From assembly GCA_022844265.1 (NCBI GenBank), contig JALHMA010000012.1, positions 1 through 37,096 on the forward strand: a stretch of 37,096 nucleotides of DNA, given 5' to 3'. This document shows positions 1 through 30,801 of the stretch, piece after piece. The stretch comes from Saprospiraceae bacterium (GTDB lineage Bacteria; Bacteroidota; Bacteroidia; Chitinophagales; Saprospiraceae). Every line of letters starts with the position of its first letter. Positions within the stretch are counted from its first letter, which is position 1. A program made the translations under genes and the position numbers. The notes under the pieces were generated by a model, which worked only from the letters and a program-made list of their open reading frames with translations, was not told the DNA's origin and made no database searches.

Positions 1-231
1 AGAAGCGGTTCCGAAGCGGATTTCGAAGCGCCTTCGGAAATAAACGGCGTGAAAATGAGCACCCTGCTCCGGCGCATGGCGGCGGCACTCCAGGAAAATG
101 GTACGCCCGCTCTGGTACGTGCGATCGGCGAATATACCGGGCTGGTATTGAGCTGGGCAGAGCGATTCAACAGCCTGAGACAAGTTTTTGATGAAATTAA
201 ACAAATAGATACCGGCGCACAAACCGGGTAA
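1..231 (+). CDS. C-terminal fragment of an ORF that continues upstream of the window; its C-terminal module resembles the C-terminus of the next gene
   Basis: Frame 1 is open from base 1 (RSGSEADFEAPSEINGVKMSTLL...) to the stop at 229-231. The 49..231 ORF in the track is only an internal ATG. Confidence 0.7.
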   Translation, partial: RSGSEADFEAPSEINGVKMSTLLRRMAAALQENGTPALVRAIGEYTGLVLSWAERFNSLRQVFDEIKQIDTGAQTG

Positions 232-249
232 CTCAAAAAAACATCAACC

Positions 250-1680
250 ATGGATTGGTCAAGACAGGAACGCATCGAAATACACGACCGGCTGGTCGCT
301 ATGCTGGATGATGTCCGCAAGGAGATCATGGCGAAGTATCCGGATGTTGTGTCCGTGGATGTCGGCCTGAAACAAGTAAAAGGCCAACCACAGCAAATAA
401 TCTGCTTTCGACTACACGTCAAGCAAAAGAAGCCGCTCAGCCAACTCAAGCCTCAGGAAGTCCTTCCGTCAGCAATCGCTGGCATTCTAACCGATGTCAA
501 GGTCGATACCCCTTATTACATCAATGCGGATACCGGCAGTTATGACCCTATGTGGGGCGGTGTAGGTATTAAAACGCAAGAAGTACCCATATCGGGCACC
601 TTGGGTTGTTTTGTCACCCTGAATGCGGATGGAAAAGCTCATTTGCTCAGTAACCACCACATCCTCAAAGGTTCTACAGGCGCCATTGGCAAACTGGTCG
701 GCCAACCCACCGAGCCCGACGACACTTGCTGTTGCTGCATTTGCGGTGATATCGCCAAAGTTGTGGATACTGAAGATAATGCATCCGTAGATTGCGGAAT
801 CGCCATTCTCCTGGATAAACGGTTTTCAAACAACATATTGCAAATAGGACCGATTTTCGGCGATGCTCCGGCAATAATCGGCGACATTGTCAGAAAACGA
901 GGCGCGTCGAGCGAACTGACCTGGGGGGTCGTCATGTCCACGATGGAATCACCTAATGTACCTATTAACGGCCTCTTACGAACCAACCAGATTGAAGTGA
1001 TGCCCGATCCCATATTTCCTGAATTTGGAACCGGCGGCGACTCGGGCGCTGTGTATGTGAACAACTTAAACCAGATTATAGGGCTGCACTTTTCTTCCAA
1101 TAGAGTACCCGGGCCGGATAATTCCGCATTGGGCAACCACATCAGTGAGGTCAAGACCGCCTTGGGCATATCTATCCCATCCGCGGGTACTTTGGGAGCC
1201 ATTCCGCTTTCTGGCATTGCAGCCGAACCCATTTTAACGGCCAATCCCCATACTTTCATCCACCAAATAGAGCAAAAACTGAAGCGCAGCGAGCCGGGCC
1301 AGAAATTGTTACAGGCCATCCGCGACAACCGTCACGAAGTTATGGACCTTATCAACGACAACCGGGAAGTAAAAGTAGCCTGGAACCGCTACAATGGGCC
1401 TTCTTACATTGGGCATCTTATGAAGAATGCCCGCGAGCCACAACACAGTATACCCAAGGATATCCAAGGCTATTCTTTCAACAATCTTCTTATCAAAATG
1501 AGCGACGTACTGGAACGGCACGGCAGTCGGAAACTGGCCAAAGCCGTGGAAGACTATTCCGTCGTCGCGTTCGATTTTGCGCATGAATATACCGGGGCAG
1601 GGTCGCTCGACAGCCTGTTGGAGAAGCACAGCTTTTGCCCGCAATGCGGAACCATAAAAAACCCCAAACGCCATGCCTGA
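250..1680 (+). CDS. Trypsin-fold (chymotrypsin-like) serine protease, no obvious signal peptide, with extra C-terminal module
   Basis: 476 aa. Candidate catalytic triad motifs: LLSNHHIL (His), NASVDCGIAIL (Asp), GTGGDSGAVYV (Ser). N-terminal part resembles NAL1-like bacterial peptidases. Confidence 0.75.
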   Translation: MDWSRQERIEIHDRLVAMLDDVRKEIMAKYPDVVSVDVGLKQVKGQPQQIICFRLHVKQKKPLSQLKPQEVLPSAIAGILTDVKVDTPYYINADTGSYDPMWGGVGIKTQEVPISGTLGCFVTLNADGKAHLLSNHHILKGSTGAIGKLVGQPTEPDDTCCCCICGDIAKVVDTEDNASVDCGIAILLDKRFSNNILQIGPIFGDAPAIIGDIVRKRGASSELTWGVVMSTMESPNVPINGLLRTNQIEVMPDPIFPEFGTGGDSGAVYVNNLNQIIGLHFSSNRVPGPDNSALGNHISEVKTALGISIPSAGTLGAIPLSGIAAEPILTANPHTFIHQIEQKLKRSEPGQKLLQAIRDNRHEVMDLINDNREVKVAWNRYNGPSYIGHLMKNAREPQHSIPKDIQGYSFNNLLIKMSDVLERHGSRKLAKAVEDYSVVAFDFAHEYTGAGSLDSLLEKHSFCPQCGTIKNPKRHA

Positions 1681-4600
1681 TCAAAACCCCGGTACGCTGG
1701 ATGCCATCGGCATTGAATTGATCAAAGTCTTACAACCCATCAAGACAAGGGTGGAAGAGGGCGACATCCTGCTGCTGCTGGCAGAACTGGGCATCCAGTT
1801 TCCGGAAGCGCTGAAAGATGACTCAACCTTTACTTCCGCCCTGGACGGCTTAGTAGACGATGTCTCGGCCATGCCCGACATTGTCAAGTTATTGGTCGCC
1901 GCTATATCTGCTGAGGAATGGGGAGAAGTGGGCAATCAATCGGCCGCCCTGACCGCAAAAATCATCTCCGCCATCCAGAAATTCACAGTCGTCAAAGACG
2001 CGCTCGACAATTTTCCCATGGACGGTCTATCGGGGGGCGATCTATCGGAGCTTGAAGGTTTTGTCGCCGATTTCGTCCGCAACCTGTTAGATTACTTGTT
2101 GATTCACTACCTGGAAAGCAAGTCCGAAGTGCTGGTAGCCGGGCTTGAATTTTTTGGTATACTGGATCGATCGGTTCAGCGCGCAGGTTCCACCAACCCC
2201 GTATTTCCGGAATATGTTAAATACCAGCTACAATTAGACAATGTTCCCAAGCTCTTCGACAATCCCGGCGAGCTGCTGCGAACCCTGTACGGCTGGGGCG
2301 ATCCCAGTTTCACCGGCCATGCTATGCTGGAAAAGCTGGGCAAACTGGCCTTGGGCCTGGGGCTGCCGGCGGTCTACAACCCCGCCACACCCGAATTGGA
2401 CGTTCTGTTTGTCCGCCTTACTCCCAATCTCGGGCTAAGCCCTTTGCCCGGTCTTGATATTTTGATCCACGATAACTTCGGCATGGCGGGCGCATTTTCT
2501 ACGGGCACCGAGGACTGGAACTTTACCAGCGGCCTCAGCGCCTCAATAGAGGTAGGCGCGCTCATCACCCTGAGCCCTGCCGGGGACGTATCCCTACGGC
2601 CGGTTGTCGGGCCGTTCAACGGGGAACTTACACTCGTTTTCACGGTACCCGGTTCGGCGCCTTCCTCAACGCCGTACATCCTCATCGGCGAACCGGATGC
2701 CAGCCGCTTCGAGTTCGCGCAGTTTCGCCTCGAAGCGGGCGCAGGCCTGACCTGGCAACCGCCCGACGCGCGGGGGCGTTTCCATGTGGAAGGAGAACTG
2801 AGCGAAGGCAAGATCGTCATCAAACCGCGCGATCCCGACGGATTTCTCGCCAAAATTCTGCCCGAAGAGGGCATTGTCATCGACCTTAGTTTTTTGATGG
2901 GCTACGACAGCGACAGGGGGTTTTACTTCGACGGCAGCGGCGGGCTGGAAATTCAGTTGCCGGTCAATTTGCAACTCGGACCGCTCCTGATCCAGGCGCT
3001 CACGCTTTCCTTGCAAGCCGGTTCGGGCGGTATTCCCATCGGCATCGGCGCCGACGTCGGCCTCACGCTCGGGCCGTTTGCAGCCGTGGTGCGGAACATG
3101 GGCATTAAAGCGATCCTGACTTTCCCGTCCGACAATAGCGGCAACCTCGGCGCTGCCAACCTGGAAGTCGACTTCAAGCCACCAACTGGCGTGGGTTTAT
3201 CCATTGACGCCGGAGTGGTCAAAGGCGGCGGGTTTCTGGATTTCAACTTTGAACAGGGAAAATATACCGGAATTGTCCAGCTCTCCATTCAGGGGGTGGT
3301 CAACGTCATTGCCATCGGCCTGATCACGACCAAAAATCCGGATGGTAGCCCGGGCTTTTCCATGTTGCTGCTGATCACCGCGGAATTCACGCCGATCCAA
3401 CTGGGCTTCGGCTTTACGCTCAACGGTGTGGGCGGTCTGGTTGGCGTCAACCGCACCATGATATTGCAGGCACTCCGGGACGGTGTGCGCAATAATACGC
3501 TCGACAACATTCTTTTCCCTTCCGATCCGATTGCCAACGCCAACCAGATCATCTCCGATCTCGAACGCGTTTTCCCCACGCAGCAAAATCGCTTCACTTT
3601 TGGGATCATGGGCAAACTGGGCTGGGGTACGCCTACCCTCATCAGCTTGGAAATAGGTCTCATGCTGGAGGTGCCCAACCCGGTCAGGCTGGCTATTCTG
3701 GGCGTCATCAAAATGACATTGCCTACGGAAGAAGCCGCTATTCTCAAACTACAGGTCAATTTTGTCGGAACGATCGATTTTGAAGCGCAATACATCACTT
3801 TCGATGCCAGCCTGTTTGATTCTACGCTGCTCATTTTTACCCTCGAAGGAGATATGGCGCTGCGCATCAAGTGGGGCAACAACTCCAATTTCCTGTTTAC
3901 GGTAGGCGGCTTCCATCCGAACTATACGCCGCCGCCCCTGGATTTACCTGACCTGCGGCGCTTGTCCATTAGTTTGCTCAGCGGCAACCCGCGGCTTACA
4001 GTGAGTTCGTATTTTGCCGTAACATCCAATTCCGTGCAATTCGGCGCCGGAGTAGATTTTTATTTCGGAGTAAGCGGATTCGAGGTGATCGGCTATTTGA
4101 ATTTCGATGCACTGTTCCAGTTCAATCCTTTCTATTTCAATATTTCAATCTCAGCGGGTTTAGGCGTTTATCTGGGCGGCAGCGAGATCATGGGCATCCA
4201 TTTGAGCGGAACGCTGGAAGGCCCTACGCCCTGGCACATTACGGGGCGCGTCAAATTTAGCATTCTATTTTTTATCAGTATCAGTGTAAGCGTAGAGACC
4301 ACCTGGGGCGATTCCCAGAACACCTCTCTGCCCGATATCGAGGTATTGCCGGAACTGAAAAAAGCTTTGCAGAATAAGGCCAACTGGCTCACGCCTCTTG
4401 AAGCGACCAATGAAAACCCGGATAATCTGGTGCAGTTACGCATGATAGAGAACACGGACGAGCAAATTATCGCCCATCCGAGTCGTAGCCTGTCGGTGAG
4501 CCAAAAGGTGGTACCCCTAGACATAGACATAGAAAAATTCGGCACCCAGAACCCGGCGGATTATTCCAATTTCCATTTAGTCCTCGTAGACGGGGATGGT

Positions 4601-5098
4601 GTTGAAATAGGAAGTTCGGCCCTGAAAGAAGAATTCGCGCCGGATAGTTTTTTCAGACTCACCGAATCGCAACGCGTGAGCAGGCCTTCCTTTGAAAAAT
4701 ACAACAGCGGATTGAGTGGAACGGGCACCTCCGAACTGACATCCGATTTTTTCCGGGAAAGAGAAGTAGAATTCGAACAGATTATCCTGGACGAACCCGA
4801 CCCCACGCCCATACTGGTATCTTATGATGTGCTGCAATTCAACGCATTTATTAAAAACGGTTCGGCGGCTAAATCTCCCCTCGGGAGCAAGGCGAATAAA
4901 ATCTCTCCATTGGCGCCCGGCAAGGTCGGCCTCGCCACAGAGGGCTTCTCTATTGTCAACACCGACAACCTGGCCCTGTTCGAAGGCATACAGACCGCCA
5001 GTTTTCAGGAGGCGCAGATGATGTTTCAGAGTGTTTTGACTCAGCGACCCGAACTGGAAGGCCAAATCAATATTGTTCCAACCTTTGAACTTGCTTGA
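1673..5098 (+). CDS. Large beta-rich hypothetical protein, DUF6603-like
   Basis: 1141 aa. Helical N-terminus, then a long run of alternating hydrophobic strands with Gly turns (e.g. GVGLSIDAGVVKGGGFLDFNFEQGKYTGIVQLSIQGV...FTLNGVGGLVGVNR). Start overlaps the previous stop (ATGCCTGA). Family name from memory of motifs. Confidence 0.65.
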   Translation: MPDQNPGTLDAIGIELIKVLQPIKTRVEEGDILLLLAELGIQFPEALKDDSTFTSALDGLVDDVSAMPDIVKLLVAAISAEEWGEVGNQSAALTAKIISAIQKFTVVKDALDNFPMDGLSGGDLSELEGFVADFVRNLLDYLLIHYLESKSEVLVAGLEFFGILDRSVQRAGSTNPVFPEYVKYQLQLDNVPKLFDNPGELLRTLYGWGDPSFTGHAMLEKLGKLALGLGLPAVYNPATPELDVLFVRLTPNLGLSPLPGLDILIHDNFGMAGAFSTGTEDWNFTSGLSASIEVGALITLSPAGDVSLRPVVGPFNGELTLVFTVPGSAPSSTPYILIGEPDASRFEFAQFRLEAGAGLTWQPPDARGRFHVEGELSEGKIVIKPRDPDGFLAKILPEEGIVIDLSFLMGYDSDRGFYFDGSGGLEIQLPVNLQLGPLLIQALTLSLQAGSGGIPIGIGADVGLTLGPFAAVVRNMGIKAILTFPSDNSGNLGAANLEVDFKPPTGVGLSIDAGVVKGGGFLDFNFEQGKYTGIVQLSIQGVVNVIAIGLITTKNPDGSPGFSMLLLITAEFTPIQLGFGFTLNGVGGLVGVNRTMILQALRDGVRNNTLDNILFPSDPIANANQIISDLERVFPTQQNRFTFGIMGKLGWGTPTLISLEIGLMLEVPNPVRLAILGVIKMTLPTEEAAILKLQVNFVGTIDFEAQYITFDASLFDSTLLIFTLEGDMALRIKWGNNSNFLFTVGGFHPNYTPPPLDLPDLRRLSISLLSGNPRLTVSSYFAVTSNSVQFGAGVDFYFGVSGFEVIGYLNFDALFQFNPFYFNISISAGLGVYLGGSEIMGIHLSGTLEGPTPWHITGRVKFSILFFISISVSVETTWGDSQNTSLPDIEVLPELKKALQNKANWLTPLEATNENPDNLVQLRMIENTDEQIIAHPSRSLSVSQKVVPLDIDIEKFGTQNPADYSNFHLVLVDGDGVEIGSSALKEEFAPDSFFRLTESQRVSRPSFEKYNSGLSGTGTSELTSDFFREREVEFEQIILDEPDPTPILVSYDVLQFNAFIKNGSAAKSPLGSKANKISPLAPGKVGLATEGFSIVNTDNLALFEGIQTASFQEAQMMFQSVLTQRPELEGQINIVPTFELA

Positions 5099-5100
5099 CC

Positions 5101-8100
5101 ATGAGTGACGTATTAGCCAGATATGCTTTTCTACCCTGGATGCGAAGGGGCCTTTCCGCCAAAATTGAAGAAGTGGAAAACTTCAACAATTTTACAACAC
5201 CGCCAGCCGGCGGCTGGACGCTCGAACGCCCCGAAATCGACGTGCGGGTGAATATTGCGGCAAAAAAAAGCGGTAGTACAACTGATGATTTTGTTGATCA
5301 GAGCATTTCCCTCGTTGGGCCGGGAGACATCATAGGAATCGACAACCGGGTAGTGGTCAAAACCGAACCCAGAAACTGGATCACCAATTACGAGCCTAAT
5401 TTTTTCCCTTACCTTGAATTCTATGAAGAAGATTTTCCCTGGCGGTATACTCCCGCCGCTCCAATCGGACACAAGCTTCGACCCTGGCTGGTGTTGGTTG
5501 CCCTGAAAGTAGATGAGTTTGAAAAAGACAACGCCTTGTTCGGCGCTCTTCCATCCATTCTGATCAAGGGACATGAACAGGATACAGCCGGTACGAGCGG
5601 AGCCGCCAGTCGGGTTTTTCCCAATCCTGCACAAAGCTGGGCATGGGCCCATGTACACCTGAACGGCGACCTCGATCCTTCCAACAATCTGGACCCCAAT
5701 GTGCCTGCTAACCTGAACAGTGCACTCTCCAGGTTCCGTCAACTGCTTGCCAACAACCCGGACCAAGCGGTGGCCCGGATGGTTTGTCCGCGCATCCTCG
5801 ACCCCAATACCATGTACCACTGCTTCCTGTTACCCGCTTATGAAACGGGTCGCCTGGCAGGTTTGGGTGCCGACGCGGCCATTATTTCAACCCACAATGC
5901 CCAGGAATCTTCTTTCGGCGCCGATCATCGTACAGATGCCGACCATTCCAGATACGTTGATCATTTCCCCTATTACTATGCCTGGCAATTTATGACAGGC
6001 GACGTAGGCGACTTCGAATCGCTGGTGCGAAAGCTGGTTCCCAGAGAAGTGGACCCCCGGGTAGGCACACGCCCGATGGACATTCAGGAACCCGGGTTTA
6101 ATATTTCCTTTGATTCCGTATCTGTGCCCGACAATGGCATCGTCATGTTGGAAGGCGCTCTACTCCCCCCCTTCGGCACCACTACGCGCGCGCCTTACCC
6201 AACCCACGTTACGACCCCTGCCTACACCTATCGTAAAAGGCTGGCTGATCTGCTCAATCTGAGTGAAGACCTGATGGAAGCCACTTTCCCGCCTTCTCAA
6301 TTTTACGGAACCAATCCATTCGGATACCATGGGCCAGCTAATCTGATTGAGGATGATCCCATCATTACGCCGGACCTCTACGGTCGATGGCATGCCTTGA
6401 AAAACACCCTCGACACTAACCTTGGTCCGGCAGGCGCACTTAACCACAACAAGACCTGGTTTTACGAACTCAACCTTGATCCGAGAAGCCGTGCCGTAGC
6501 GGGGCTGGGGGTGAAACATGTGAAAAACAACCAGGAAAAAATCATGGACAAGGCATGGGATCAAATAGGGGAAGTGATCGAAGCCAATAGAAAACTGCGT
6601 TGGGGGCAATTTTCCCAGCAGGTAGCTTTTGCCTCTTTTTCCAAAAACCTGAAAGCCCAGACGTCTGAACAAGCGAACGCTATAGCTGCCAATCTATACC
6701 GGAAAGTTAAAATCGGCTCCCTGACCGCTTTCAAACAAGTAAATGACAGCGCGCTGCCAAACGCCGTACAAAGCTATGCTTACCGGCGGATGGAACGACC
6801 GGCCGGGCCCTTTATGAAACGCATGGGCCTGGGAAACGTCATTTTCAACAATAACTTAAGAATATCGCTGGCAAACAAAACACAGGTCGCTGTGGCACCC
6901 AAGGTATCCAGCCAAATGCAGGCAAGTCTGCCCGGGCTGAACGTCAACCAGGATGTACAGATCGTGTCCAATCATTTCGTAAAGACGCCCATGTTCGCGC
7001 CCATGGAACCCTTTATACAGGAGGTTGAACCTAATATGGAAGCGGAAATTCGGTTCCAGGCTGCCGTCGGCGATTACCTGAATTACTTTGGAGCCGACAA
7101 CTGGCTTGACGTGCCCGATCTGCCTGCCCTCAACCTGACCGCTCTGACCAATCAGGTGATTAATTTTATTAACCCGTTATCAATTATCCCCAAATACGTC
7201 TATCACAATATCCATTTCAGTAAACCGACTTATCCCGTTCCGCCGGCCGATAAAATCGTACCGGTGATGGCATATCCCGTTTTCCCGGAACCCATGTACG
7301 AGTCGGTTAAAGCGTTGGGAGTAGATTTTCTTATTCCGAATCTTCACCTGATTCCCAACAACACCGTCACACTGCTGGAATCCAACCAGCGATTCGTGGA
7401 GGCTTTTCTGGCAGGAACCAACCACGAAACGGGCAGGGAATTACTTTGGCGGGAATTTCCCACAGATCAGCGAGGCAGTTACTTCCGTCAGTTCTGGGAT
7501 TCGAGCGACCAGGTCAACAGCGGAGACTTGAGTGAAGAAGTTTTGGCAAGCCAGGGGCTGGATATCGAAGAAATACACACTTGGTTATCCAATTCCGAAC
7601 TGGGTACTCACAATGCCCGGCCCGGCGTACCCGATACGGGACTCTTAGTGATGGTCATCCGTGGCGACCTGCTGAAAAAATTTCCGGATACGGTTATTTA
7701 CGCTCAACAAGCGCGGTTCAAGGCCGGCAGCAACCACCTGACCGACCCGCGCGAACTGGCGGAAGCCAAAGAGTTTCCCATTTTCAGCGCAAAAATAGAA
7801 CCGGATATTACCTTCTTCGGCTTCAACCTAACGGCAGAACAGGCGCTGGGTGACCGCAATACGAGTGATCCGGGCTGGTTTTTCGTAATCCAGGAACGTC
7901 CGGGAGAGATACGGTTCGGTCTTGACATCGGCGGTTCGGGTGCAGCGCCGGCCACTTGGAACGACCTCAATCAAGCCAATGCTTCTATCAGCGGTATATA
8001 TCTAAATGCAACGGACAATGCGGTAAACCCTTCTGGAGTCAATGGCAACAGAATAAATGGCAAACCGGTCAACTGGGGTTTTAATTCAACCAATTTTGCG

Positions 8101-8160
8101 CAAATCCTATATCAAAACCCGGTGCTGCTGGCAGTTCATGCCGATGAAATGATTCCTTAA
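5101..8160 (+). CDS. Large hypothetical protein (1019 aa from the preferred ATG) of a four-protein uncharacterised locus
   Basis: ORF track starts at TTG 5095 (MTMSDV); ATG 5101 is preferred, two bases after the preceding TGA. Distinctive motifs FLPWMRRGL, FFPYLEFYEEDFPWRYTPAAP, LRPWLVLVAL, SWAWAHVHL. Confidence 0.7.
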   Translation: MSDVLARYAFLPWMRRGLSAKIEEVENFNNFTTPPAGGWTLERPEIDVRVNIAAKKSGSTTDDFVDQSISLVGPGDIIGIDNRVVVKTEPRNWITNYEPNFFPYLEFYEEDFPWRYTPAAPIGHKLRPWLVLVALKVDEFEKDNALFGALPSILIKGHEQDTAGTSGAASRVFPNPAQSWAWAHVHLNGDLDPSNNLDPNVPANLNSALSRFRQLLANNPDQAVARMVCPRILDPNTMYHCFLLPAYETGRLAGLGADAAIISTHNAQESSFGADHRTDADHSRYVDHFPYYYAWQFMTGDVGDFESLVRKLVPREVDPRVGTRPMDIQEPGFNISFDSVSVPDNGIVMLEGALLPPFGTTTRAPYPTHVTTPAYTYRKRLADLLNLSEDLMEATFPPSQFYGTNPFGYHGPANLIEDDPIITPDLYGRWHALKNTLDTNLGPAGALNHNKTWFYELNLDPRSRAVAGLGVKHVKNNQEKIMDKAWDQIGEVIEANRKLRWGQFSQQVAFASFSKNLKAQTSEQANAIAANLYRKVKIGSLTAFKQVNDSALPNAVQSYAYRRMERPAGPFMKRMGLGNVIFNNNLRISLANKTQVAVAPKVSSQMQASLPGLNVNQDVQIVSNHFVKTPMFAPMEPFIQEVEPNMEAEIRFQAAVGDYLNYFGADNWLDVPDLPALNLTALTNQVINFINPLSIIPKYVYHNIHFSKPTYPVPPADKIVPVMAYPVFPEPMYESVKALGVDFLIPNLHLIPNNTVTLLESNQRFVEAFLAGTNHETGRELLWREFPTDQRGSYFRQFWDSSDQVNSGDLSEEVLASQGLDIEEIHTWLSNSELGTHNARPGVPDTGLLVMVIRGDLLKKFPDTVIYAQQARFKAGSNHLTDPRELAEAKEFPIFSAKIEPDITFFGFNLTAEQALGDRNTSDPGWFFVIQERPGEIRFGLDIGGSGAAPATWNDLNQANASISGIYLNATDNAVNPSGVNGNRINGKPVNWGFNSTNFAQILYQNPVLLAVHADEMIP

Positions 8161-8194
8161 TGTGGCTGTATTGCCATTAGTACTTGTAAACTGA

Positions 8195-11100
8195 ATGACC
8201 ATGAAGCTCAATAAGTCCAAATTCGCCTCTCTTCAAAAGAAAACGAGTGAAAAAAGAGAGCTTTTGAAGCGTAAAAAGCAGGATTTGCAAACAATCCGGG
8301 CAGCGCTTGCCACATCTGCCAGGGATTTGAAAAACGAACTGGTCAAAGGAGCCGGCGCTCAAAAGAGCAAGGTAGACAGGATAAAAAAAAATCAAGACAA
8401 CCTGCACGCCAGGTTAGGTAAAACACAGGAACAGATCGTCGGAATAGAAACCGATCTGAGCAATATTATTGGTGAAGTACTGTTTTCGCGCGACCCGCGC
8501 GACCAGATTGCGCTGCTTGATGATAACTATCCTGTTTTTTTGATACCAGTCCGGATAGAAACGCGCTTTATGACGGTTAAACACATTGCCAGAGTAAAGC
8601 CAGAACTGCCGCCGCCGTTGGAAACCCCGATTTTGACCATTGTAGGGGGCATTCCGGTTGCAGCGCCCCAACTGCTCAGCGTGGGCGCCCTGTTCGAAGG
8701 CAGAACGGAAATACCCGTTATCAAAGACGCTCAAGAACTCTGGATCCGCATTTTCCCCGATGATATTGCTATTCACACCCATGAAGACCGCCTGACCGAA
8801 TCTGAAATACAAGCCGCCCAAATCTTCTGGAACCATATCTGGTATGCAGGCGAAGACCGCTCGCTGCAAATCGGCGCCTGGCGCGGCCTGGTGTCGGGCA
8901 GGGGCCCTGAACGGGCAGCCTGGATCGCTAAACAAATGGAACCTGCCAACCCGCAGGATAAACCTGCCGCCGCTACAGACCCTGCTCAACCGCTTCCATA
9001 CAGCCCCGTATTCCCTACCCCAGGAGTTAAATCGAGTAGCTGGAGCCACGCACCGCACACACGGGTAATGCCCGAACGATTCGTCGCCCGTTTATACACC
9101 GGATCGACCTATCGCGAGGTGGTAGGCGAAACCGTAGCAGATTCCCTGCAACTCGGCCCGGATCCTCTTGCCGGCGCGGGAGAAATCACCAGCACGGACG
9201 GGTTGCTCGAACTGGCCGACCCATTAAAATGGATGAAAGATTTTGAAGAAGCGGAAAAAACAGGAATGGCCATTCGGGTGCCGTTGATGCACCGGGAGCA
9301 TTTGACAGGTTTTGACAGGATACTTGTACTCGGTGTCAAGGCCGCTGCCGGCCCGGATGAAGGACAGGCCCTGCTCGAAGAACTGATCGACAACCACCAT
9401 TATCGGCACGGTGGATTTTCCATTGTTCCGCAGGGTACGCCGACCAACAACACTGAAGATGTCAAATCGGGATACACTGCCTTTAACAGCGATGACGAAG
9501 AACTTTTTGATATTGAACTGAAGGATGCGAGATTTGAGCCCAGTGTGCTCGACCTCGAAAAAACCGACGGCCAACGCTTAGCCGAAGCCTTGGGAATCTC
9601 TTATAAAACCCTGCAGCATATTCGACATGCCGACCGCAAGGATATCCGGGAGGCTATGCTCATGAACCGCGCACTCTGGCCCACTACATTCGGATATTTT
9701 TTGTCGCAAATGATGCACCCAGTTTTTTCAAGCGGCGATATCATACAGACCCGTAGCCATTTCAATCAGTACGTGCTGGGGCGGGGCAAAATGCCAGCAA
9801 TACGAATCAATAATCAGCCGTATGGCATTCTCCCGGCGACAGCTTTTTCAAAATGGACTTATCCTGATAACAGCATTCATTCCCGGTTTCTGAATAATAT
9901 GCACAAGCAGGTGCTCAAAAACATGGAAACCACCTGGGACAACCTTTCCCAGCGTGTAAAATATGCAGGCGGGGTAGTAAATTCTGCAGAATTCAGTAAT
10001 CATTTTTTAGATATTGTAGGCCTGCACCCTTCCAGTGTGGAATTTTACCAGCGCTTCATTGCCGGCCCTTATTTTCTCTGGAACCTGTACAATTACAGCC
10101 AGATTATACAGAAAAACAATGTCAACTTCGAACAGGCTTCCTATGCAACTTCGCTGGATTTTCTTCAATTGTTCAACAGTCAAAACTACTCATTCGTCTT
10201 GCCGCCCCGGGTATTTGACTTTTTCTACCTCAAAGATCACAAATACCTTGACGGGCCGTTGATTGATACCCTGGGCCTGTCCGAATTACGCACGATCCAG
10301 GCAATGGGCAGCCAGGGGGAAAACTATATCCACTGGCTGGCTAAAAGCAACTGGAACGAGATCAAAGCCGAAAACTTCACGAATATCGGCGCCCCGGGTG
10401 CTAAACCGCCCACAGCACTGCTATACCTGATGTTGCGCCACTCCACCCTGTTAGAGTATGTACGCACCAGCCTTACCCTGCTTGTAGACAAGGGTATTCT
10501 TGCTACATCCGCATTGATCGATACGGAACTGATGAATTTGGGAGCCATGGGGCAGATTAGCATGGAAACAAAAAATCTGGTAAAAACCCAGATACAGTTC
10601 AAGGAAGGGTTATTGCTAGAAAAAGACATCGAGAAAAAGGTACAAAAGGAGTTTGAAACCCGTGCGGCAAAAGGCGAACTGGAAGACTTGAACCTGAAAT
10701 CGCTGAACCAGGTAAAATCGGAATACAAGGCGGCATTGAAATCCACTGCAGCACCCAAAATGGAAGCGAAAGTCGAAGCAGAGCTCAACATAGTACTGCA
10801 AGGCTTTCAAAATACTGTCAATAAAATTGAAACCCTCACCGCCAGTTATGAATTTCTGCAAGGTATCACCCTAGCGGACTATATACGACAGGAAATTTTT
10901 AAACCCAACCCCAATCAGGACCTAATTGAAATACAGGAACTGGTAGAAGCATTGAACGGCCTGGCGGATTTGCCGACGGCCCGGCTGGAGCGGTGTTTTG
11001 CCGAGCATATAGACCTGGCCTCGTATCGGCTCGATGCGTGGTTTTACAGCCTGGTGCTGGATCGTCTGGAAAATCTTCGCAATAAAGGCGCCGAGCGAAC

Positions 11101-13945
11101 TACCGGCGTTTACCTGGGCGCCTATTCCTGGCTGGAGGATATCCGGCCAGGCAGTCTACCCGGCATTCATTACAGGGAAGTAGATATTACACCCGATGTG
11201 ATTGTAGTCCCGGGGTTCCGGGAAGTTGCCCTTGAAGGACTGACTATTCAGGGACAAATCAATACGGGAAGGCCCTGGTTGTCTATCCAGGATATCCTTC
11301 TGCAATCCCCTATTGTGTCTACACCCACATCGCCCCGACCGATCAGCACAACGCGCACCGAGAAAGGGCCGCCCGATCCTGTAGTGAACGATCTGGAACT
11401 AATGCCGACCAGCGGGGCGATTCTGACTATCCAGCAAAAAGTTGAACAGGCTTATTTGAATACTCCCTTGCTGCTGGACGTACCTGTCATCAAAAACCCG
11501 GGCCCTCCGTACGTTTATTTGGGAAAGGACAATGTCGGCGACATCACTTACGATCCTGTTATTGACAAATTTATCCATAATCCAAGGGTTGACCCTGGCA
11601 ACCAAGGTTATATTCATGCGCCTTCCATAAATCAGGCGACGGCAGCAGCCGTCCTGCGTTCGGGGTACGTGTCGCACAATGCCAGTTCCCCGGACAATAA
11701 AATGGCAATCAATCTGAGCTCCGACCGCGTCCGCAGAGCCATGTACTTTGCAGAAGGGATGAAAAACGGTCAGGAACTGGCCGCATTATTGGGCTACCAG
11801 TTCGAAAGGGGATTGCATGACCGGGATACCGGCCTGGATGCCTTTATTCTGGAGATCAGGACCAAATATCCCCTGGTTGCAGGTCGGGTCACAGACAATA
11901 GCGGCGTAACCAGCATTTCAAGCGCCGAAGCTTATAACGTAGTTAACGGCCTTGAACTGGTAGAAAACAGTAGGAATTCCAGCGCCGATTATCCCTATGG
12001 CGTGAGTGGTTTGCCAAATTCAGGCTCTGCCAAATCCGCTATTATAGAAGAAGTCGATAGGTTGCACGATTCGCTCGATGCGATCAGCGATCTGTTGCTA
12101 TCCGAATCGATGTACCAGGTTGTACAGGGTAATTTCGCCCGGGCGAATGGCGCCCTGAATGCGATGGGAGGGCAAAGCGTCGTAATTGATCCCGAGGTGA
12201 TTAAAACGCCTAGAAAATTCCACGTGCTTTCGCACCGGTTGGGCGTGCAATTTGACCTTTCCCCCAATGGGCATACTATGTGGACCTCGCAGGGTACTGC
12301 ACGTTCGCTGGCCGAACCGTTTCTGAATCGCTGGCTGAGCAGCATGCTGCCGGATAAAAATAAACTGTTGGTCAATTTCCAGTACAGAGTATATACACCG
12401 GAAGGATTTCCCGGCGCTGTTTTTGAAGACATGCTGTCGTTGGGAGATCTGGGCCTGGAACCTATCGATTTGTACTGTATCCTGACCCAACCTTCAGAAC
12501 AGGGCGATGCCGTGGAATTAGTGAATCGGATCGCATATCACGTTCGTAAGAACATAGAAATGGCGGACCGGATCAGTATCGAAGTACTCTTTACCTTCCG
12601 CACCGGATTTGCGCAAGACGAATTGTCGCTGTTCGAATTACAACCGCTCATCGATCAGCTGCATGCAGTGGTGGGGAATAGCCGGCACGCCAAAGCAACA
12701 GACTTCCTGTTATCCACAGGTGCGGAGAGCGTTATTGCTGCCAACCCTGCCAAAGGGCTGGATACTGCCCCGCTTTTTGCCCGCCTTTCAAATGTTGCAG
12801 GCCTCACCATGTCAAACGGTGCGCGGGGGCTTCTGGGTGTTATTACAGACATACAAACAGAGGTAACAGGTATCAATACACTGATTTCAAATGTCGGATT
12901 TCCGGGAATAAGCGGAGCCGCACTGTTTGCCTTGCGGGAAGCCCTGACTGGAGCGCTTATGTTCGGTGTACAGAATGCCGTGCCCGACTCTGCGGTTGAT
13001 ACATCCGAAACGATCGTCAACGACTTGCTTTTACTGGCTGCCCGCGTACTGACCGAACTGGAGCCCCGACAGGTAAAAGCTGCAGACTTGTTGTCTCAGG
13101 CGCCCGCAGCCTCCAGTGAAGATCAAAAACTGGTTATTTTGAGCGAGGTAGCCAGGCAAATATTCGGCCGTTCGTTCAAAGTGTACCCGGAATACCGTCT
13201 CTACAACGACAGCGTATTCGACGCCGCCTTGCAGTATCCCGATTATTTAAACGACGCTTCGCCTTTTGCCCTCGAAGAATGGCTACAGGGATTGTCGCCC
13301 GTGCGGAAACGTACCCACGCCTACCATCGGGCCCGGCTGTTGTCGCAGACCCTCCGGAATACGGATAGCCATCTGCAACTTACGTTGTCGCAATTGCCGC
13401 TGGAACCTTTGGACGAATCCGCTAACGTATTAACGCGTTGGTTGGGAGTCGAATTCCCGAAGGGCTACCGCATGCCGGATGAAAACATTTCTTTCGTCCT
13501 GCAAATGCCGAACAGTTATTCCGCAGGTAGTCTACAGGCCGGCATTATTGTAGACGAATGGGTAGAGGAAATACCGGAGGAAACGGCATATACGGGCGTA
13601 GCGATACATTACAACAATCCGAATTCCGAACCCCCTCAGTCCTGTCTGCTGGCAGTTTCGCCCGATCTCACCGGGCAATGGTCCTGGGACGATCTGATGG
13701 ATACTTTGTCCGAAACCCTGGATTGGTCCAAAAAACGGGCGGTCGACCCGGATTTGTTGAACGATTCGCTGTATGCCCAGGTATTACCCGCCATTTTTGC
13801 AGCAGTCAGTGCGAGCGGCAACACACCCACTTTGGATTTTGGAAGAAATATAATTAAAAAACCTACGCCCGGCAAGATTGATCTTGTCCGGATCTCGGAT
13901 TATATAGTGGGAGAATCTCCTTTTGATATTAATCTTTTTCCATAA
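8195..13945 (+). CDS. Giant hypothetical protein (1916 aa), basic coiled-coil N-terminus
   Basis: Continuous ORF. Lys-rich heptad-like N-terminus (KKTSEKRELLKRKKQDLQTIR...), then ELWIRIFPDDIAIHTHEDRLTESEIQAAQIFWNHIW. Alternative start at 8201. Confidence 0.7.
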   Translation: MTMKLNKSKFASLQKKTSEKRELLKRKKQDLQTIRAALATSARDLKNELVKGAGAQKSKVDRIKKNQDNLHARLGKTQEQIVGIETDLSNIIGEVLFSRDPRDQIALLDDNYPVFLIPVRIETRFMTVKHIARVKPELPPPLETPILTIVGGIPVAAPQLLSVGALFEGRTEIPVIKDAQELWIRIFPDDIAIHTHEDRLTESEIQAAQIFWNHIWYAGEDRSLQIGAWRGLVSGRGPERAAWIAKQMEPANPQDKPAAATDPAQPLPYSPVFPTPGVKSSSWSHAPHTRVMPERFVARLYTGSTYREVVGETVADSLQLGPDPLAGAGEITSTDGLLELADPLKWMKDFEEAEKTGMAIRVPLMHREHLTGFDRILVLGVKAAAGPDEGQALLEELIDNHHYRHGGFSIVPQGTPTNNTEDVKSGYTAFNSDDEELFDIELKDARFEPSVLDLEKTDGQRLAEALGISYKTLQHIRHADRKDIREAMLMNRALWPTTFGYFLSQMMHPVFSSGDIIQTRSHFNQYVLGRGKMPAIRINNQPYGILPATAFSKWTYPDNSIHSRFLNNMHKQVLKNMETTWDNLSQRVKYAGGVVNSAEFSNHFLDIVGLHPSSVEFYQRFIAGPYFLWNLYNYSQIIQKNNVNFEQASYATSLDFLQLFNSQNYSFVLPPRVFDFFYLKDHKYLDGPLIDTLGLSELRTIQAMGSQGENYIHWLAKSNWNEIKAENFTNIGAPGAKPPTALLYLMLRHSTLLEYVRTSLTLLVDKGILATSALIDTELMNLGAMGQISMETKNLVKTQIQFKEGLLLEKDIEKKVQKEFETRAAKGELEDLNLKSLNQVKSEYKAALKSTAAPKMEAKVEAELNIVLQGFQNTVNKIETLTASYEFLQGITLADYIRQEIFKPNPNQDLIEIQELVEALNGLADLPTARLERCFAEHIDLASYRLDAWFYSLVLDRLENLRNKGAERTTGVYLGAYSWLEDIRPGSLPGIHYREVDITPDVIVVPGFREVALEGLTIQGQINTGRPWLSIQDILLQSPIVSTPTSPRPISTTRTEKGPPDPVVNDLELMPTSGAILTIQQKVEQAYLNTPLLLDVPVIKNPGPPYVYLGKDNVGDITYDPVIDKFIHNPRVDPGNQGYIHAPSINQATAAAVLRSGYVSHNASSPDNKMAINLSSDRVRRAMYFAEGMKNGQELAALLGYQFERGLHDRDTGLDAFILEIRTKYPLVAGRVTDNSGVTSISSAEAYNVVNGLELVENSRNSSADYPYGVSGLPNSGSAKSAIIEEVDRLHDSLDAISDLLLSESMYQVVQGNFARANGALNAMGGQSVVIDPEVIKTPRKFHVLSHRLGVQFDLSPNGHTMWTSQGTARSLAEPFLNRWLSSMLPDKNKLLVNFQYRVYTPEGFPGAVFEDMLSLGDLGLEPIDLYCILTQPSEQGDAVELVNRIAYHVRKNIEMADRISIEVLFTFRTGFAQDELSLFELQPLIDQLHAVVGNSRHAKATDFLLSTGAESVIAANPAKGLDTAPLFARLSNVAGLTMSNGARGLLGVITDIQTEVTGINTLISNVGFPGISGAALFALREALTGALMFGVQNAVPDSAVDTSETIVNDLLLLAARVLTELEPRQVKAADLLSQAPAASSEDQKLVILSEVARQIFGRSFKVYPEYRLYNDSVFDAALQYPDYLNDASPFALEEWLQGLSPVRKRTHAYHRARLLSQTLRNTDSHLQLTLSQLPLEPLDESANVLTRWLGVEFPKGYRMPDENISFVLQMPNSYSAGSLQAGIIVDEWVEEIPEETAYTGVAIHYNNPNSEPPQSCLLAVSPDLTGQWSWDDLMDTLSETLDWSKKRAVDPDLLNDSLYAQVLPAIFAAVSASGNTPTLDFGRNIIKKPTPGKIDLVRISDYIVGESPFDINLFP

Positions 13946-13977
13946 CCCCAGCGCCTCTATTAAGATAATAAGTTACC

Positions 13978-16900
13978 ATGTTGAAAATATCTGATATACA
14001 GGAAAATATGGCCCGTCAGGGTGCTATCTCGGTTTACCAGCTGGCTATTCTGGACTTTCTCAATCAGGCCAAAACCCCCGAGGACATAGCCGGAAAGGAA
14101 CCGCAACGAGGACCACTGGAAGATGATCCCGGAAGAAAATCTACCCGGAAAGGTTATGATATCGGAATCACCGTGGCGGAAAGGATTCTGGCACACAGGG
14201 CTTCGTTTCCGGGCAATCAGTTTACAGACATCGTGCAACTGGCCGATATTCCCTATTTCGGTATCGACAAATTCAATGACCTCATCTATACCTTCGTAGC
14301 CTTGCGCGCACCTGTTCCAACCGGCTTGGGGCAGGAATTTGATGACTTTATCAAGGCCCTGAGCGCGTTGGAAGTCAATGCGCTACGAAGAAAAATACCC
14401 CCTGCCCATACGATTTCCGCCGTAAGAAAAATATTCTTTGACGACAAGGTGCCCTCATTGCGGGGCGGCGATGACAATCATTTTGATTGGAACAAAATAA
14501 TACCGGCGGCTGAAAAGGTTCAGTCGCCGGCAGATTGGGGCATCAATATGGGATTGATCAACGCTGTGAACTATATCACGCGCAACCCGAATATCCGCAT
14601 CGGCGGTAAATGGGTGAATATGCATTGGCTGATAGCTGGGCTGGATGCCAAAAACCGGCCTGCCGTGGTGGATACCGGCCATGGAGAAACGGAGATTAAG
14701 TCCAATTTGGAACTTGCGACATACTTACTGGGTGTCGGAAATTCCGCCTATCAGTACTTGAAAGTTTTTGATATCGGGCCGCAAGACAGGTTTGAAATCA
14801 AGCAACCTGAACTGGCCGACAGTTACAACAAATTTGCGCCCGCAGCAGTATTGACGGCTTTTGCCGATGTATACGCCATGCCGTATCAAAAAGAACGCTC
14901 GCTCTCATGGAACCTATTGACCTATTATACCGACCAAGAAGGACCTGTTAAAAGCAGGTTCCAGCATTTTGCCCGGACTTTAAACCTGGGCGAATTGACG
15001 GATGGTATTTTTACTAAAGATACGGTGGAATTCAGACAGGCCTTGGTTCACAAAATACAATCCGCAACATTCTTCGAGTTGAGCCAGAACAATCGGGATG
15101 CCTTTGTCCGTCGTATGCTGAACGACCCCGACAAGGATAGCGCGGCCCTTACTTACCGAGTCGCTACAGCTTATGTAAGCGATCTTTTCCTGGATAATTT
15201 ATACCTCCAGGTCAGTATGGAAATTTCGCGGCCGGCCATCCTATCATGGAACCGGCTGGAAGCGCGGCCCAGAACGCAGGATTTTTCCCGGGTACTACGT
15301 GCCGAAGTCAGGGATGCCCTGTGGTTCCTGAGCCGGCAATGGCAAATGGGCGAATTCAAGGGAGAAGACACTGGGTCCTCCGTAGAGATGCGCGTCGACA
15401 TGGAAACCACCCTGATTAATAAATTTTCTCTGAAGGGTGGGAATGCGCAATCATACGACGGTACCGTACCGATGGAAACGATCGTGGAGCGCGAACCCAT
15501 TCAACTGGATTTTACGATGCGCCAGGAAATGGGTCGCCATTTCGAACGGTTACTACAGGCAAAATTATCGGCCGCCCCCGGAAGTATAGCACAAAGTGTG
15601 ATCGATGGGATCAGGGCGGATTTTAGAAACACGCCCGCTTTTCAGTTTTCCCTGCCCACCCCTGCCGAATTTTATCCGGAAATACATAGCAATACTGCAT
15701 TGCTGAAGATATACGCCTGCCTGAGTGAAGGGCGTGCGCTCGACGGCGGGAACTTGTACCGGAGTATAAAGCATGGAACGCCGGCTTCTTCTTACGCGAC
15801 TTCAACCGGAGATGCAGCGGCCCTGAGCAGGGTCGACGATGCAGCAGCAGATCTATTGGTCTGGTTTGAACGCGTTTATAGTCAACCTGCCTCCGCCACC
15901 GAGTCCGCCTGGAACCCCTCTCAGTTGGAATACCAGTTCCATTGCTCGGCGCCTGCAGGGCTGCACGCTTCTACCGTGCTGACTACGACGGAGTATGCCA
16001 ATGGCCATCTGGATTGGTATAATTTTGATTTTGAAACGGCTGCGGACGAATATAACGGTACTTTGACCAGTGGAATGCCTGATGCCAACCTGATCAACCG
16101 GCGCTTGATTTCAGTATTACCAGCCGACCTGATTTTTCCGGGTATGCCAGCGTCCCGTTGGTGGCAGTTTGAAGACTACAAAATCGACATCGGCGATATT
16201 AAAGCCAACACGAATGAAGTCCCCAAATTGTTGTTGGCGGAATTTGCGCTGATTTACAGCAATGACTGGATGTTACTGCCATTTAACGTTCAGGTGGGCA
16301 ACCTCTGCAATATTCGCAACCTAGTGGTGAAGGATGTTTTTGGACAGTACATCCAGGTCAATGCGGCGGGAGCAGGTGACGATACGGATTGGCAACGCTG
16401 GTCGATGTTCAACCTAAAAAGAAGAAACATGCTTTCTGGTCGGGCCGACAACCGCCTGTTCGTTCCGCCTGCCGTGATCCGGACCATGGAAAGCGAACCT
16501 ATTGAAAAAGTAAACCTGTTGCGCGACGAAATGGCGAATATGGTCTGGGGCATTGAAACGTCTATTCCCGATGGGCTTGGCAGTCATGAGGATGGCTGGG
16601 ATGCTGCCCGTCGCCTCTACGATTACCTTATAAAAATTACTCCGTCGCCGGGAACACAACCGCCGGTCAATAATGACGCCCAAATACGATATCAAATCGG
16701 CACAACGGTTCCGGAACACTGGATTCCTTTTATCCCCGTTCGCCTGGGCGGTGTAAACAGCCGGCAGATACAGCTTCGGCGAGCTGCTATGCCCAGGCTT
16801 ATTCCTGGCCGTACACCTGAACGCATTCGCCCGCGCACGGAATTGTTGCGAACCGGCTATGATCCTTCAGCCCAAACCTGGGGGCCTTACTTCCTACACG

Positions 16901-17067
16901 AAGAAGAAGTGCCACGCTCAGGCGTGCAGGTCACACGGTCCTGGCAACGTACCCGATGGCTCCAAGGCGCGGTATTCACATGGTTGGGGCGGCAAGTCAA
17001 AAACGGACGGGGGGAAGCAAACAGCGGACTGGAATTTGATAGCGTTCAGGAAAAAGAAGTTTTATAA
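13978..17067 (+). CDS. Large hypothetical protein (1029 aa) with N-terminal helix-hairpin-helix-like segment
   Basis: Continuous ORF. AERILAHRASFPGNQFTDIVQLADIPYFGIDKFNDLI looks HhH-like. Internal motif LRAEVRDALWFLSRQWQMGEFKGEDTGSSVEM. Confidence 0.7.
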   Translation: MLKISDIQENMARQGAISVYQLAILDFLNQAKTPEDIAGKEPQRGPLEDDPGRKSTRKGYDIGITVAERILAHRASFPGNQFTDIVQLADIPYFGIDKFNDLIYTFVALRAPVPTGLGQEFDDFIKALSALEVNALRRKIPPAHTISAVRKIFFDDKVPSLRGGDDNHFDWNKIIPAAEKVQSPADWGINMGLINAVNYITRNPNIRIGGKWVNMHWLIAGLDAKNRPAVVDTGHGETEIKSNLELATYLLGVGNSAYQYLKVFDIGPQDRFEIKQPELADSYNKFAPAAVLTAFADVYAMPYQKERSLSWNLLTYYTDQEGPVKSRFQHFARTLNLGELTDGIFTKDTVEFRQALVHKIQSATFFELSQNNRDAFVRRMLNDPDKDSAALTYRVATAYVSDLFLDNLYLQVSMEISRPAILSWNRLEARPRTQDFSRVLRAEVRDALWFLSRQWQMGEFKGEDTGSSVEMRVDMETTLINKFSLKGGNAQSYDGTVPMETIVEREPIQLDFTMRQEMGRHFERLLQAKLSAAPGSIAQSVIDGIRADFRNTPAFQFSLPTPAEFYPEIHSNTALLKIYACLSEGRALDGGNLYRSIKHGTPASSYATSTGDAAALSRVDDAAADLLVWFERVYSQPASATESAWNPSQLEYQFHCSAPAGLHASTVLTTTEYANGHLDWYNFDFETAADEYNGTLTSGMPDANLINRRLISVLPADLIFPGMPASRWWQFEDYKIDIGDIKANTNEVPKLLLAEFALIYSNDWMLLPFNVQVGNLCNIRNLVVKDVFGQYIQVNAAGAGDDTDWQRWSMFNLKRRNMLSGRADNRLFVPPAVIRTMESEPIEKVNLLRDEMANMVWGIETSIPDGLGSHEDGWDAARRLYDYLIKITPSPGTQPPVNNDAQIRYQIGTTVPEHWIPFIPVRLGGVNSRQIQLRRAAMPRLIPGRTPERIRPRTELLRTGYDPSAQTWGPYFLHEEEVPRSGVQVTRSWQRTRWLQGAVFTWLGRQVKNGRGEANSGLEFDSVQEKEVL

Positions 17068-17296: not shown

Positions 17297-17305
17297 ATAA
17301 TCAAG

Positions 17306-17378
<73 letters not shown>

Positions 17379-29781: not shown

Positions 29782-30801
29782 CTATCTGCGCGGGCCGCCG
29801 CCGCTTCCACCGCGATTACCGCCGCCGCCGCTTCCGCCGCGATTGCCGCCACCACCGGTTCCGCCGCCGCGATTACCACCGCCGCCGGTTCCGCCGCCGC
29901 GATTGCCGCCGCCGCCGGTTCCGCCGCGATTGCCACCGCGATTACCGCCACCGCCGCCTTCGCGACGATCACCGCGTTCTCCGCGGTCGCCGCCTTCGCG
30001 ACGATCACCGCCACCGCGGCGATCTCCGCCGCGATCTCCACCACCGCCTCTGCGATCTCCGCCGCGGTCGCCGCCGCCTTCGCGACGATCACCACCGGTT
30101 CCTTCAGCTGCTGCGAACGGAGTCAGTTCGCGTTTAGTCAGTACTTCTCCTTTGAAAAGCCATACTTTGATACCGATTTTACCGTATACGGTCTGGGCTT
30201 CCACCCAGGCGTAGTCGATGTCGGCACGGAAAGTATGCAGAGGCGTACGACCTTCTTTATATTCCTCGCTGCGTGCAATTTCGGCGCCACCTACACGACC
30301 GCTGATACGCACCTTGATTCCTTCTGCTCCGGCACGCATGGTACCTTGAATAGAACCTTTGATGGCCCGGCGATAGTTGATACGCGCTTCAATTTGTTTG
30401 GCGATTTGTTCGCCTACAATGTTCGCATCGAGTTCAGGCTTCCGGATTTCAAAGATGTTGATTTGAACATCTTTGCCCGTGAGCACCTTGAGTTCTTCTT
30501 TTATCAGGTCAACTTCCTTACCACCTTTGCCGATAATGATACCGGGACGGCTGGTATGGATGGTGACGGTAACCCGCTTCATCGTACGTTCAATGACAAC
30601 ACGGCTGATACCGTTTTGCATTGGCTTGTTACGGTCGCGCGGATCGGCCGTTGCCGTTTTTGGACGGCGCGCACGGAGGTAGTTACGAATTTTTTCGTCT
30701 TCCACCACTTTAAGACCGTAGTCTTTGTCGGCATACCAGTTAGAATCCCAACCGCGAATGATGCCCAAGCGATTACCAATCGGATTTGCTTTTTGACCCA
30801 T
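29782..30801 (-). CDS. rpsC: 30S ribosomal protein uS3 with about 110-aa Gly/Arg/Asp/Asn-rich C-terminal tail
   Basis: [29 protein letters not shown]... KH motif [14 protein letters not shown]; tail [20 protein letters not shown]...[18 protein letters not shown]. Confidence 0.97.

What the first reader, a model, noticed from the sequence alone, without database searches (positions are those of the whole stretch)
1..17067. Operon of a protease plus four giant uncharacterised proteins: candidate undescribed multi-component system
Seen: six co-directional ORFs with tiny gaps or overlaps (8-bp overlap at 1673; 2-nt gap at 5098/5101; about 30 nt at 8160/8195 and 13945/13978) encode proteins of 1141, 1019, 1916 and 1029 aa behind a trypsin-fold protease. 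None has an evident signal peptide, and none shows motifs of secretion machinery, phage tail, NRPS/PKS or restriction. Motifs such as DFPWRYTPAAP, LWFLSRQWQMGEFKGEDTGS and WIRIFPDDIAIHTHE look like conserved family signatures; I have an unverified recollection of similar hypothetical proteins in Actinobacteria and Myxococcota. Inference: the four large proteins form one cytosolic assembly whose processing or activation depends on the protease. The operon start lies outside the window.
Basis: partly seen in the sequence, partly recalled or inferred. Interest (0 to 1): 0.85.

Follow-up and report, generated by a model that had tools for sequence, protein, structure and literature searches.

The report
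Four-protein assembly with swappable enzyme cargo
Bacteria and some archaea share an undescribed set of four very large proteins, always encoded together, next to one gene slot that holds a different digestive enzyme in different species; it looks like a new kind of enzyme-carrying molecular machine whose purpose is still untested.

Summary
Genes 2-5 (DUF6603, P3, P4, P5) form an almost invariant cassette. In GTDB, 428 stretches encode P3. Of the 69 retrieved loci that are not cut short, 68 carry all four genes on one strand, across at least 11 bacterial phyla; plasmids add Gemmatimonadota and haloarchaea. Only DUF6603 has a named Pfam family, of unknown function. P3-P5 match no Pfam, PHROG, PADLOC or PDB family, and a confident model of the P5 core has no fold match. 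The key discovery is the first gene. The trypsin-like protease is one occupant of a variable slot that elsewhere holds PhoD phosphatases, M64 metallopeptidases, subtilases, phospholipase-D-like enzymes, galactose/glyoxal oxidases or tyrosinase. Sister cassettes 60-79% identical carry unrelated enzymes, and five classes occur within the window's own genus. Trypsins and subtilases share a ~98-aa C-terminal domain that also occurs as a stand-alone gene, including the truncated one at window 1-231. So the protease is most likely cargo, not an activator of the complex. Best reading: a four-protein chassis that carries swappable enzymes, probably for export or delivery. The modular cassette is shown; delivery is inferred. 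No description was found in an open-access literature search.

The parts
1..231 (+). C-terminal 76 aa of a stand-alone 'tag' protein (5' part lost at the contig start); full-length 138-140 aa homologues sit at the same place in L013, L014 and L016
   Evidence: tag HMM E 2e-11; whole-genome search E 1.4e-9; contig begins here
250..1680 (+). P1, cargo slot: trypsin-like serine protease with H-D-S motifs (H136/H137, D181, GDSG at 263-266)
   Evidence: motifs; homologous to cassette trypsins; weak PDB hit to glutamic-acid-specific protease; no Pfam hit of its own at E<=1, relatives hit Trypsin/Trypsin_2 weakly
1279..1569 (+). C-terminal tag domain of P1 (aa 344-440), shared with tagged subtilases and the stand-alone tag gene
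1673..5098 (+). P2, core: DUF6603 protein; N-terminal helical region (about aa 1-160), then a long antiparallel beta-sheet of amphipathic strands
   Evidence: Pfam E 3e-139; AF2 model pLDDT 77.6, pTM 0.45; strand alternation; Foldseek resemblance to SprA, ushers, LptD, apoB at low TM-score
5101..8160 (+). P3, core: no known family; remote relative in the type II cassette
8195..13945 (+). P4, core: largest subunit, no known family
13978..15231 (+). N-terminal extension of P5 (418 aa), found only in the window and its closest relatives L013, L014, L016
   Evidence: weak HHH_3 hit E 0.27
15229..17067 (+). P5, core domain: confident model without a PDB or viral fold match
   Evidence: AF2 pLDDT 82.5, pTM 0.79; fold searches negative
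17305..17378 (-). tRNA-Ala(GGC), 3' boundary of the cassette; ribosomal protein L17 and following genes beyond
   Evidence: not a general integration site

Best explanation
The locus is one copy of a widespread modular system. Four co-encoded, co-inherited large proteins (DUF6603, P3, P4, P5) form a chassis, and one or more genes in front of them encode a swappable enzyme payload. Shown: the fixed core, the variable enzyme slot, enzymatic motifs kept in most payloads, repeated replacement of payload class on a conserved core, and a small domain that joins payloads of two unrelated protease folds and also exists in trans. Inferred: the four proteins assemble; the tag domain docks or chaperones the payload; the assembly moves the enzyme out of the producing cell, to or across a target envelope. 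The DUF6603 sheet of amphipathic strands would contact lipid or line the passage. In the window the payload is a trypsin-like protease.
For: Core: 428 P3-encoding stretches in GTDB genomes; 68 of 69 untruncated loci have all four genes with mostly overlapping or near-zero gaps; same order on plasmids of Streptomyces, Rhizobium, Gemmatirosa and haloarchaea. Slot: PhoD in 14, M64 in 10, S8 in 6, PLD in 3, galactose/glyoxal oxidase in 2, tyrosinase in 1, plus about a dozen trypsin-type loci. Motifs kept in most: HExxH with a downstream acidic residue, DDHE/SGDVH, two HKD, GDSG; the subtilase patterns HGTH/GTSMA were found in only some. Swapping: at least 25 class changes over 56 labelled loci; pairs such as L070/L082 have 68-79% identical cores and M64 versus trypsin; five classes in the window's genus. 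Tag in cis and in trans; in 393 genomes 4 of 5 tag genomes carry the cassette, Fisher p 6e-7. Export: payload families are usually secreted, yet no cassette PhoD passes a hydrophobic N-terminus cut-off that 12 of 19 PhoDs from the same and related genomes pass. A target-binding hint: tail-fibre-like genes beside the related type II cassette. A membrane or lipid hint for P2.
Against: No experiment or multimer model shows that the four proteins bind each other or the cargo. No contractile, translocase, NTPase or immunity gene is conserved beside the cassette. The P2 model has low overall confidence (pTM 0.45) and TM-scores of at most 0.15 by query length to its best matches. The tag is found only on trypsins and subtilases, not on PhoD, M64, PLD or oxidase payloads. 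Fibre-like genes were seen only in type II loci (2 of about 10). The signal-peptide test is a simple hydrophobicity cut-off. The 80 loci were chosen by similarity to P3, so rates are not unbiased.
Confidence: 0.5

Rival explanations
1. A scaffold or compartment that keeps one enzyme inside the cell or on its own surface (metabolosome- or cellulosome-like), without delivery to other cells.
For: No signal peptides in the core; no secretion, lysis or immunity genes conserved nearby; peptidoglycan-binding, lamin-tail and FG-GAP domains fused to or beside some core genes suggest attachment to structures; large core relative to one enzyme.
Against: The enzymes share no pathway (proteases, phosphatase, PLD, copper oxidases); most come from families that are normally secreted; fast swapping between sister cassettes resembles conflict payloads more than housekeeping.
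Confidence: 0.27
2. A defence or programmed-death system whose protease, phospholipase or phosphatase kills the host cell after infection.
For: Proteases and PLDs are common death effectors; single payload members hit EAD9 or AbiJ_NTD4 weakly; patchy distribution.
Against: No PADLOC match, no NTPase or sensor, about 15 kb of structural-looking core, and oxidases such as tyrosinase and galactose oxidase are odd suicide effectors.
Confidence: 0.1
3. One reading: a protease-activated four-protein assembly.
For: In the window the first gene is a protease with intact catalytic motifs that overlaps P2 by 8 bp.
Against: The slot is often a non-protease with the same core.
Confidence: 0.06
4. A divergent member of a known delivery machine (eCIS, Tc/ABC toxin, T6SS) that profile searches miss.
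For: Same logic: conserved apparatus, variable payload, adaptor domain in cis or trans (compare DUF4157 in eCIS, PMC11297309).
Against: No sheath, tube, baseplate, RHS or TcA family at E<=1; no PDB sequence relative; the confident P5 model matches nothing.
Confidence: 0.07

Closest known systems
DUF6603 (PF20248), Pfam family of unknown function
   Same: P2 is a full-length member (E 3e-139)
   Different: Pfam names the domain only; the four-gene cassette and payload slot are not part of it, and no held paper mentions DUF6603 or PF20248
Extracellular contractile injection systems (eCIS) with swappable toxins and DUF4157
   Same: Conserved apparatus plus variable payload next to it; an accessory domain that is either fused to the payload or encoded beside it (PMC11297309)
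   Different: No phage-tail sheath, tube, spike or baseplate proteins; tag unrelated to DUF4157 by Pfam
Tc/ABC toxin complexes
   Same: Few very large proteins and interchangeable cargo (PMC11067744)
   Different: Cargo is a separate gene, not the C-terminus of an RHS protein; no RHS/YD-repeat or TcA families found
Encapsulins and microcompartments
   Same: Shell or scaffold plus enzyme with a targeting segment (own knowledge)
   Different: No encapsulin or BMC shell family in Pfam scan; core proteins are 600-1900 aa and of four different families
NAL1-like and bacterial trypsin-like proteases
   Same: P1 relatives hit NAL1 and trypsin models weakly
   Different: Carry the cassette tag at the C-terminus

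Membership tests
DUF6603 (PF20248) | Profile match above gathering score over the whole domain | tested here: met
   465 bits against cut-off 27, positions 1-501 of 502
Extracellular contractile injection system | Sheath, inner tube, baseplate, spike genes | tested here: not met
   Pfam, NCBIfam and PHROG scans of the operon proteins
Extracellular contractile injection system | Payload loading domain or signal in cis or trans | tested here: inconclusive
   An analogous but unrelated ~98-aa domain occurs in cis and as a separate gene; loading is untested
Tc/ABC toxin complex | RHS-repeat shell (TcB/TcC) and TcA pore | tested here: not met
   No such family at E<=1 in any core protein; no PDB relatives
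Polymorphic payload system in the wide sense | Conserved carrier with frequently replaced effector | tested here: met
   25 payload-class changes on the P3 tree; sister cores with unrelated payloads
Polymorphic payload system in the wide sense | Payload acts on another cell | not testable with these tools
   Needs co-culture and localisation experiments
Polymorphic payload system in the wide sense | Cognate immunity gene next to payload | tested here: not met
   No conserved small downstream gene; extracellular hydrolases need none
Encapsulin / bacterial microcompartment | HK97-type or BMC shell protein | tested here: not met
   No such Pfam match; P5 fold search negative
Known anti-phage defence systems | Match to a PADLOC model | tested here: not met
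Trypsin-like (S1, clan PA) protease, for P1 | His-Asp-Ser triad in order with GDSG | tested here: met
   H136/H137, D181, GDSG at 263-266; fold not modelled

The most novel reading that the evidence does not exclude
A new class of protein-delivery or enzyme-display nanomachine, shared by bacteria and archaea, built from four large proteins unrelated to phage tails, Tc toxins or secretion systems, in which DUF6603 supplies a membrane-active beta-structure and the first gene supplies a swappable enzyme, some loaded through a small dedicated docking domain.
Probability: 0.4. Interest if true: 0.95.

Novelty: categorically new. Interest (0 to 1): 0.82.

Why it matters
A fixed four-protein core spread over at least a dozen phyla, with an exchangeable enzyme in front, is the genomic signature of a modular machine, yet its core proteins match no described system. 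If it delivers or displays enzymes, it would add a new kind of apparatus to microbial competition or nutrition and a programmable carrier for proteins. It also gives DUF6603 and several 'hypothetical' giants a testable context: which proteins bind, where the particle goes, and whether moving the ~98-aa tag moves a cargo.

Tried and rejected
Known machine by sequence: Pfam, NCBIfam, PHROGs, PADLOC and PDB profile searches gave only DUF6603; the coiled-coil and designed-bundle PDB hits were set aside as composition matches. Phage origin: no P3 relative in IMG/VR contigs. Gene duplication among P3, P4 and P5: profile comparisons negative. P4 of type II as a relative of P4: not supported. A universal docking domain on all payloads: not found. 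tRNA gene as integration site: the window has one close by, most other loci do not, and GC content does not differ clearly from the flank. P5 N-terminal extension as a common part: present only in the nearest relatives. Literature: no paper with DUF6603 or PF20248 and nothing from a payload-family search. The two AF2 jobs went to P2 and the P5 core; P3 and P4 were not folded.

Full report
WHAT IS THERE. The window starts at the first base of contig C12 of a 6.05-Mb, 561-contig Bacteroidota assembly. Protein 2 is a full-length DUF6603 protein. Proteins 3, 4 and 5 have no significant family match in Pfam, NCBIfam, PHROGs or PADLOC and no credible PDB relative even as profiles. P3, P4 and P5 are not relatives of one another.

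THE CORE IS ONE UNIT. tblastn against plasmids found the four families side by side in Streptomyces, Rhizobium, Gemmatirosa and haloarchaea (regions), with partial or weaker matches in Paraburkholderia and Nocardia. A P3 profile found 428 relatives in GTDB genomes. The 80 best loci come from 11 phyla. In loci not truncated around P3, 69 of 69 have P4 and P5 and 68 of 69 have P2, on the same strand, with many 4- and 8-bp overlaps. In an even sample of 393 Bacteroidota genomes, P5 occurs in 9, and each of those 9 has the whole cassette. Exceptions: Streptomyces anthocyanicus has P5 alone, and genome G398, in the window's genus, shows no P5 next to its P4. IMG/VR viral contigs hold no relative of P3.

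THE FIRST GENE IS A SWAPPABLE SLOT. Pfam scans of the genes just upstream of P2 gave PhoD-like phosphatase (14 of 57), M64 peptidase (10), subtilase (6), PLD (3), galactose/glyoxal oxidase (2) and tyrosinase (1), besides trypsin-type proteins and unidentified ones. Catalytic motifs are present in most: HExxH followed by an acidic residue in M64, GDQI/DDHE/SGDVH in PhoD, two HKD motifs in PLD, GDSG in trypsins; the simple motif patterns were not all found in the subtilases. On a P3 tree of 85 rows, the payload class needs at least 25 changes over 56 labelled loci in 10 classes. Close pairs show direct replacement: L070 and L082 (core 68-79% identical) carry M64 versus trypsin; L030 and L043 (60-70%) trypsin versus PLD; L050 and L049 (61-74%) trypsin versus subtilase. 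In the window's own genus P3 occurs in 7 of 25 sampled genomes, and the payloads are trypsin (window), tagged subtilase (G423, G398, G400), PLD (G424), PhoD (second copy in G407) and an unidentified type (first copy in G407). Some loci carry two or more payloads in tandem.

A SHARED PAYLOAD DOMAIN. The C-terminal ~98 aa of the window's trypsin recur at the C-terminus of other cassette trypsins and of subtilases, two unrelated folds, and as a stand-alone 138-140-aa gene in L013, L014 and L016. The truncated ORF at window 1-231 is the C-terminal half of such a stand-alone gene. In 393 Bacteroidota genomes the domain occurs in 5, of which 4 have the cassette (Fisher p 6e-7). The fifth, G029, is an orphan tagged trypsin. 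PhoD, M64, PLD and oxidase payloads lack it. eCIS toxins show the same cis/trans pattern with the unrelated DUF4157 (PMC11297309).

STRUCTURE. The P5 core folds confidently (pLDDT 82.5, pTM 0.79) and matches nothing in the PDB (best E 0.39) or among viral models. DUF6603 is modelled as a helical N-terminus followed by a long antiparallel sheet (pLDDT 77.6, pTM 0.45). Its best fold matches are giant beta-barrels and lipid-binding sheets: SprA, PapC usher, LptD, apolipoprotein B (E 4e-5 to 1e-3), but with query TM-scores of at most 0.15. Alternation of hydrophobic and polar residues along its strands is about twice that of shuffled strands (3.2 versus 1.4). A membrane- or lipid-facing sheet is therefore possible; this is inference.

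LOCALISATION. A simple hydrophobicity cut-off flags a hydrophobic N-terminus in none of the P3, P4 or P5 proteins, in 1 of 80 P2 proteins and in none of 14 cassette PhoDs. The same cut-off flags 12 of 19 PhoD proteins from the window's genome and its relatives. Payloads of normally secreted families thus appear to lack ordinary export signals. This fits export by the core, but it also fits an intracellular role.

A SECOND CASSETTE TYPE. Half of the DUF6603 genomes in the Bacteroidota sample (9 of 17), including contig C211 of this genome, carry another arrangement: a divergent DUF6603, a remote relative of P3 (profile comparison E 1e-10, probability 97%), in several loci a ~300-aa protein, and in most a ~1200-1400-aa protein unrelated to P4. 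Metallo-beta-lactamase-fold, DUF4135 or kelch proteins flank some. In L100 and L102 an adjacent gene matches phage tail-fibre families and the S74 chaperone. This hints at target binding, but only in type II.

HOW IT PROBABLY WORKS. Shown: fixed four-gene core, variable enzyme slot, kept catalytic motifs in most payloads, frequent replacement, shared payload domain. Inferred: assembly of the four proteins, docking by the tag, and export or delivery of the enzyme. The chassis-plus-cargo reading is well supported as a genomic pattern; the export step is perhaps 40-50% likely.

NOVELTY. The logic resembles eCIS and Tc toxins (PMC11297309, PMC11067744), but their defining parts were searched for and not found. 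No held paper mentions DUF6603 or PF20248. Subscription literature was not searchable, so an existing description cannot be excluded.

Noticed in passing
window 18238-18303/18331-18389, 28420-28458/28490-28529, also 26698-26742/26754-26794 and 32419-32448/32491-32519: Intergenic gaps hold pairs of 7- or 8-bp tandem repeats in inverted orientation with a different unit at each place; the two pairs folded form long hairpins (DNA fold z-scores -10.2 and -7.7).
   Followed up: partly
G000 contig C211 (L097), 9.8 kb: A type II DUF6603 cassette in the same genome, cut by contig ends.
   Followed up: partly
L100:2982-5096(-), L102:17603-19000(-): Tail-fibre-like proteins with an S74 intramolecular chaperone next to type II cassettes.
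   Followed up: partly
L150:9380-10792(-), genome G029: A tagged trypsin-like protease in a genome without DUF6603 or P5: an orphan payload.
   Followed up: partly
L004:17047-18852, Streptomyces anthocyanicus plasmid: P5 alone without P2-P4 on a 387-kb plasmid.
   Followed up: no
genome G398 around C1:944400 (L144, L151): Cassette with payload, P2, P3 and P4 but no P5 found directly downstream of P4.
   Followed up: no
L006, L008, L011 (haloarchaeal plasmids); L005: Core proteins carry extra domains: lamin-tail repeats on P5, decapeptide repeats in P4, FG-GAP repeats in Streptomyces P3; a peptidoglycan-binding protein precedes P2 in L005.
   Followed up: partly
window 17305-17378: tRNA-Ala(GGC) lies 238 bp after the cassette, before the L17 ribosomal-protein region; most other cassettes have no tRNA nearby.
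   Followed up: yes
window 29794-30097: GC-rich imperfect tandem repeat region, probably encoding a glycine/arginine-rich stretch on the minus strand.
   Followed up: no
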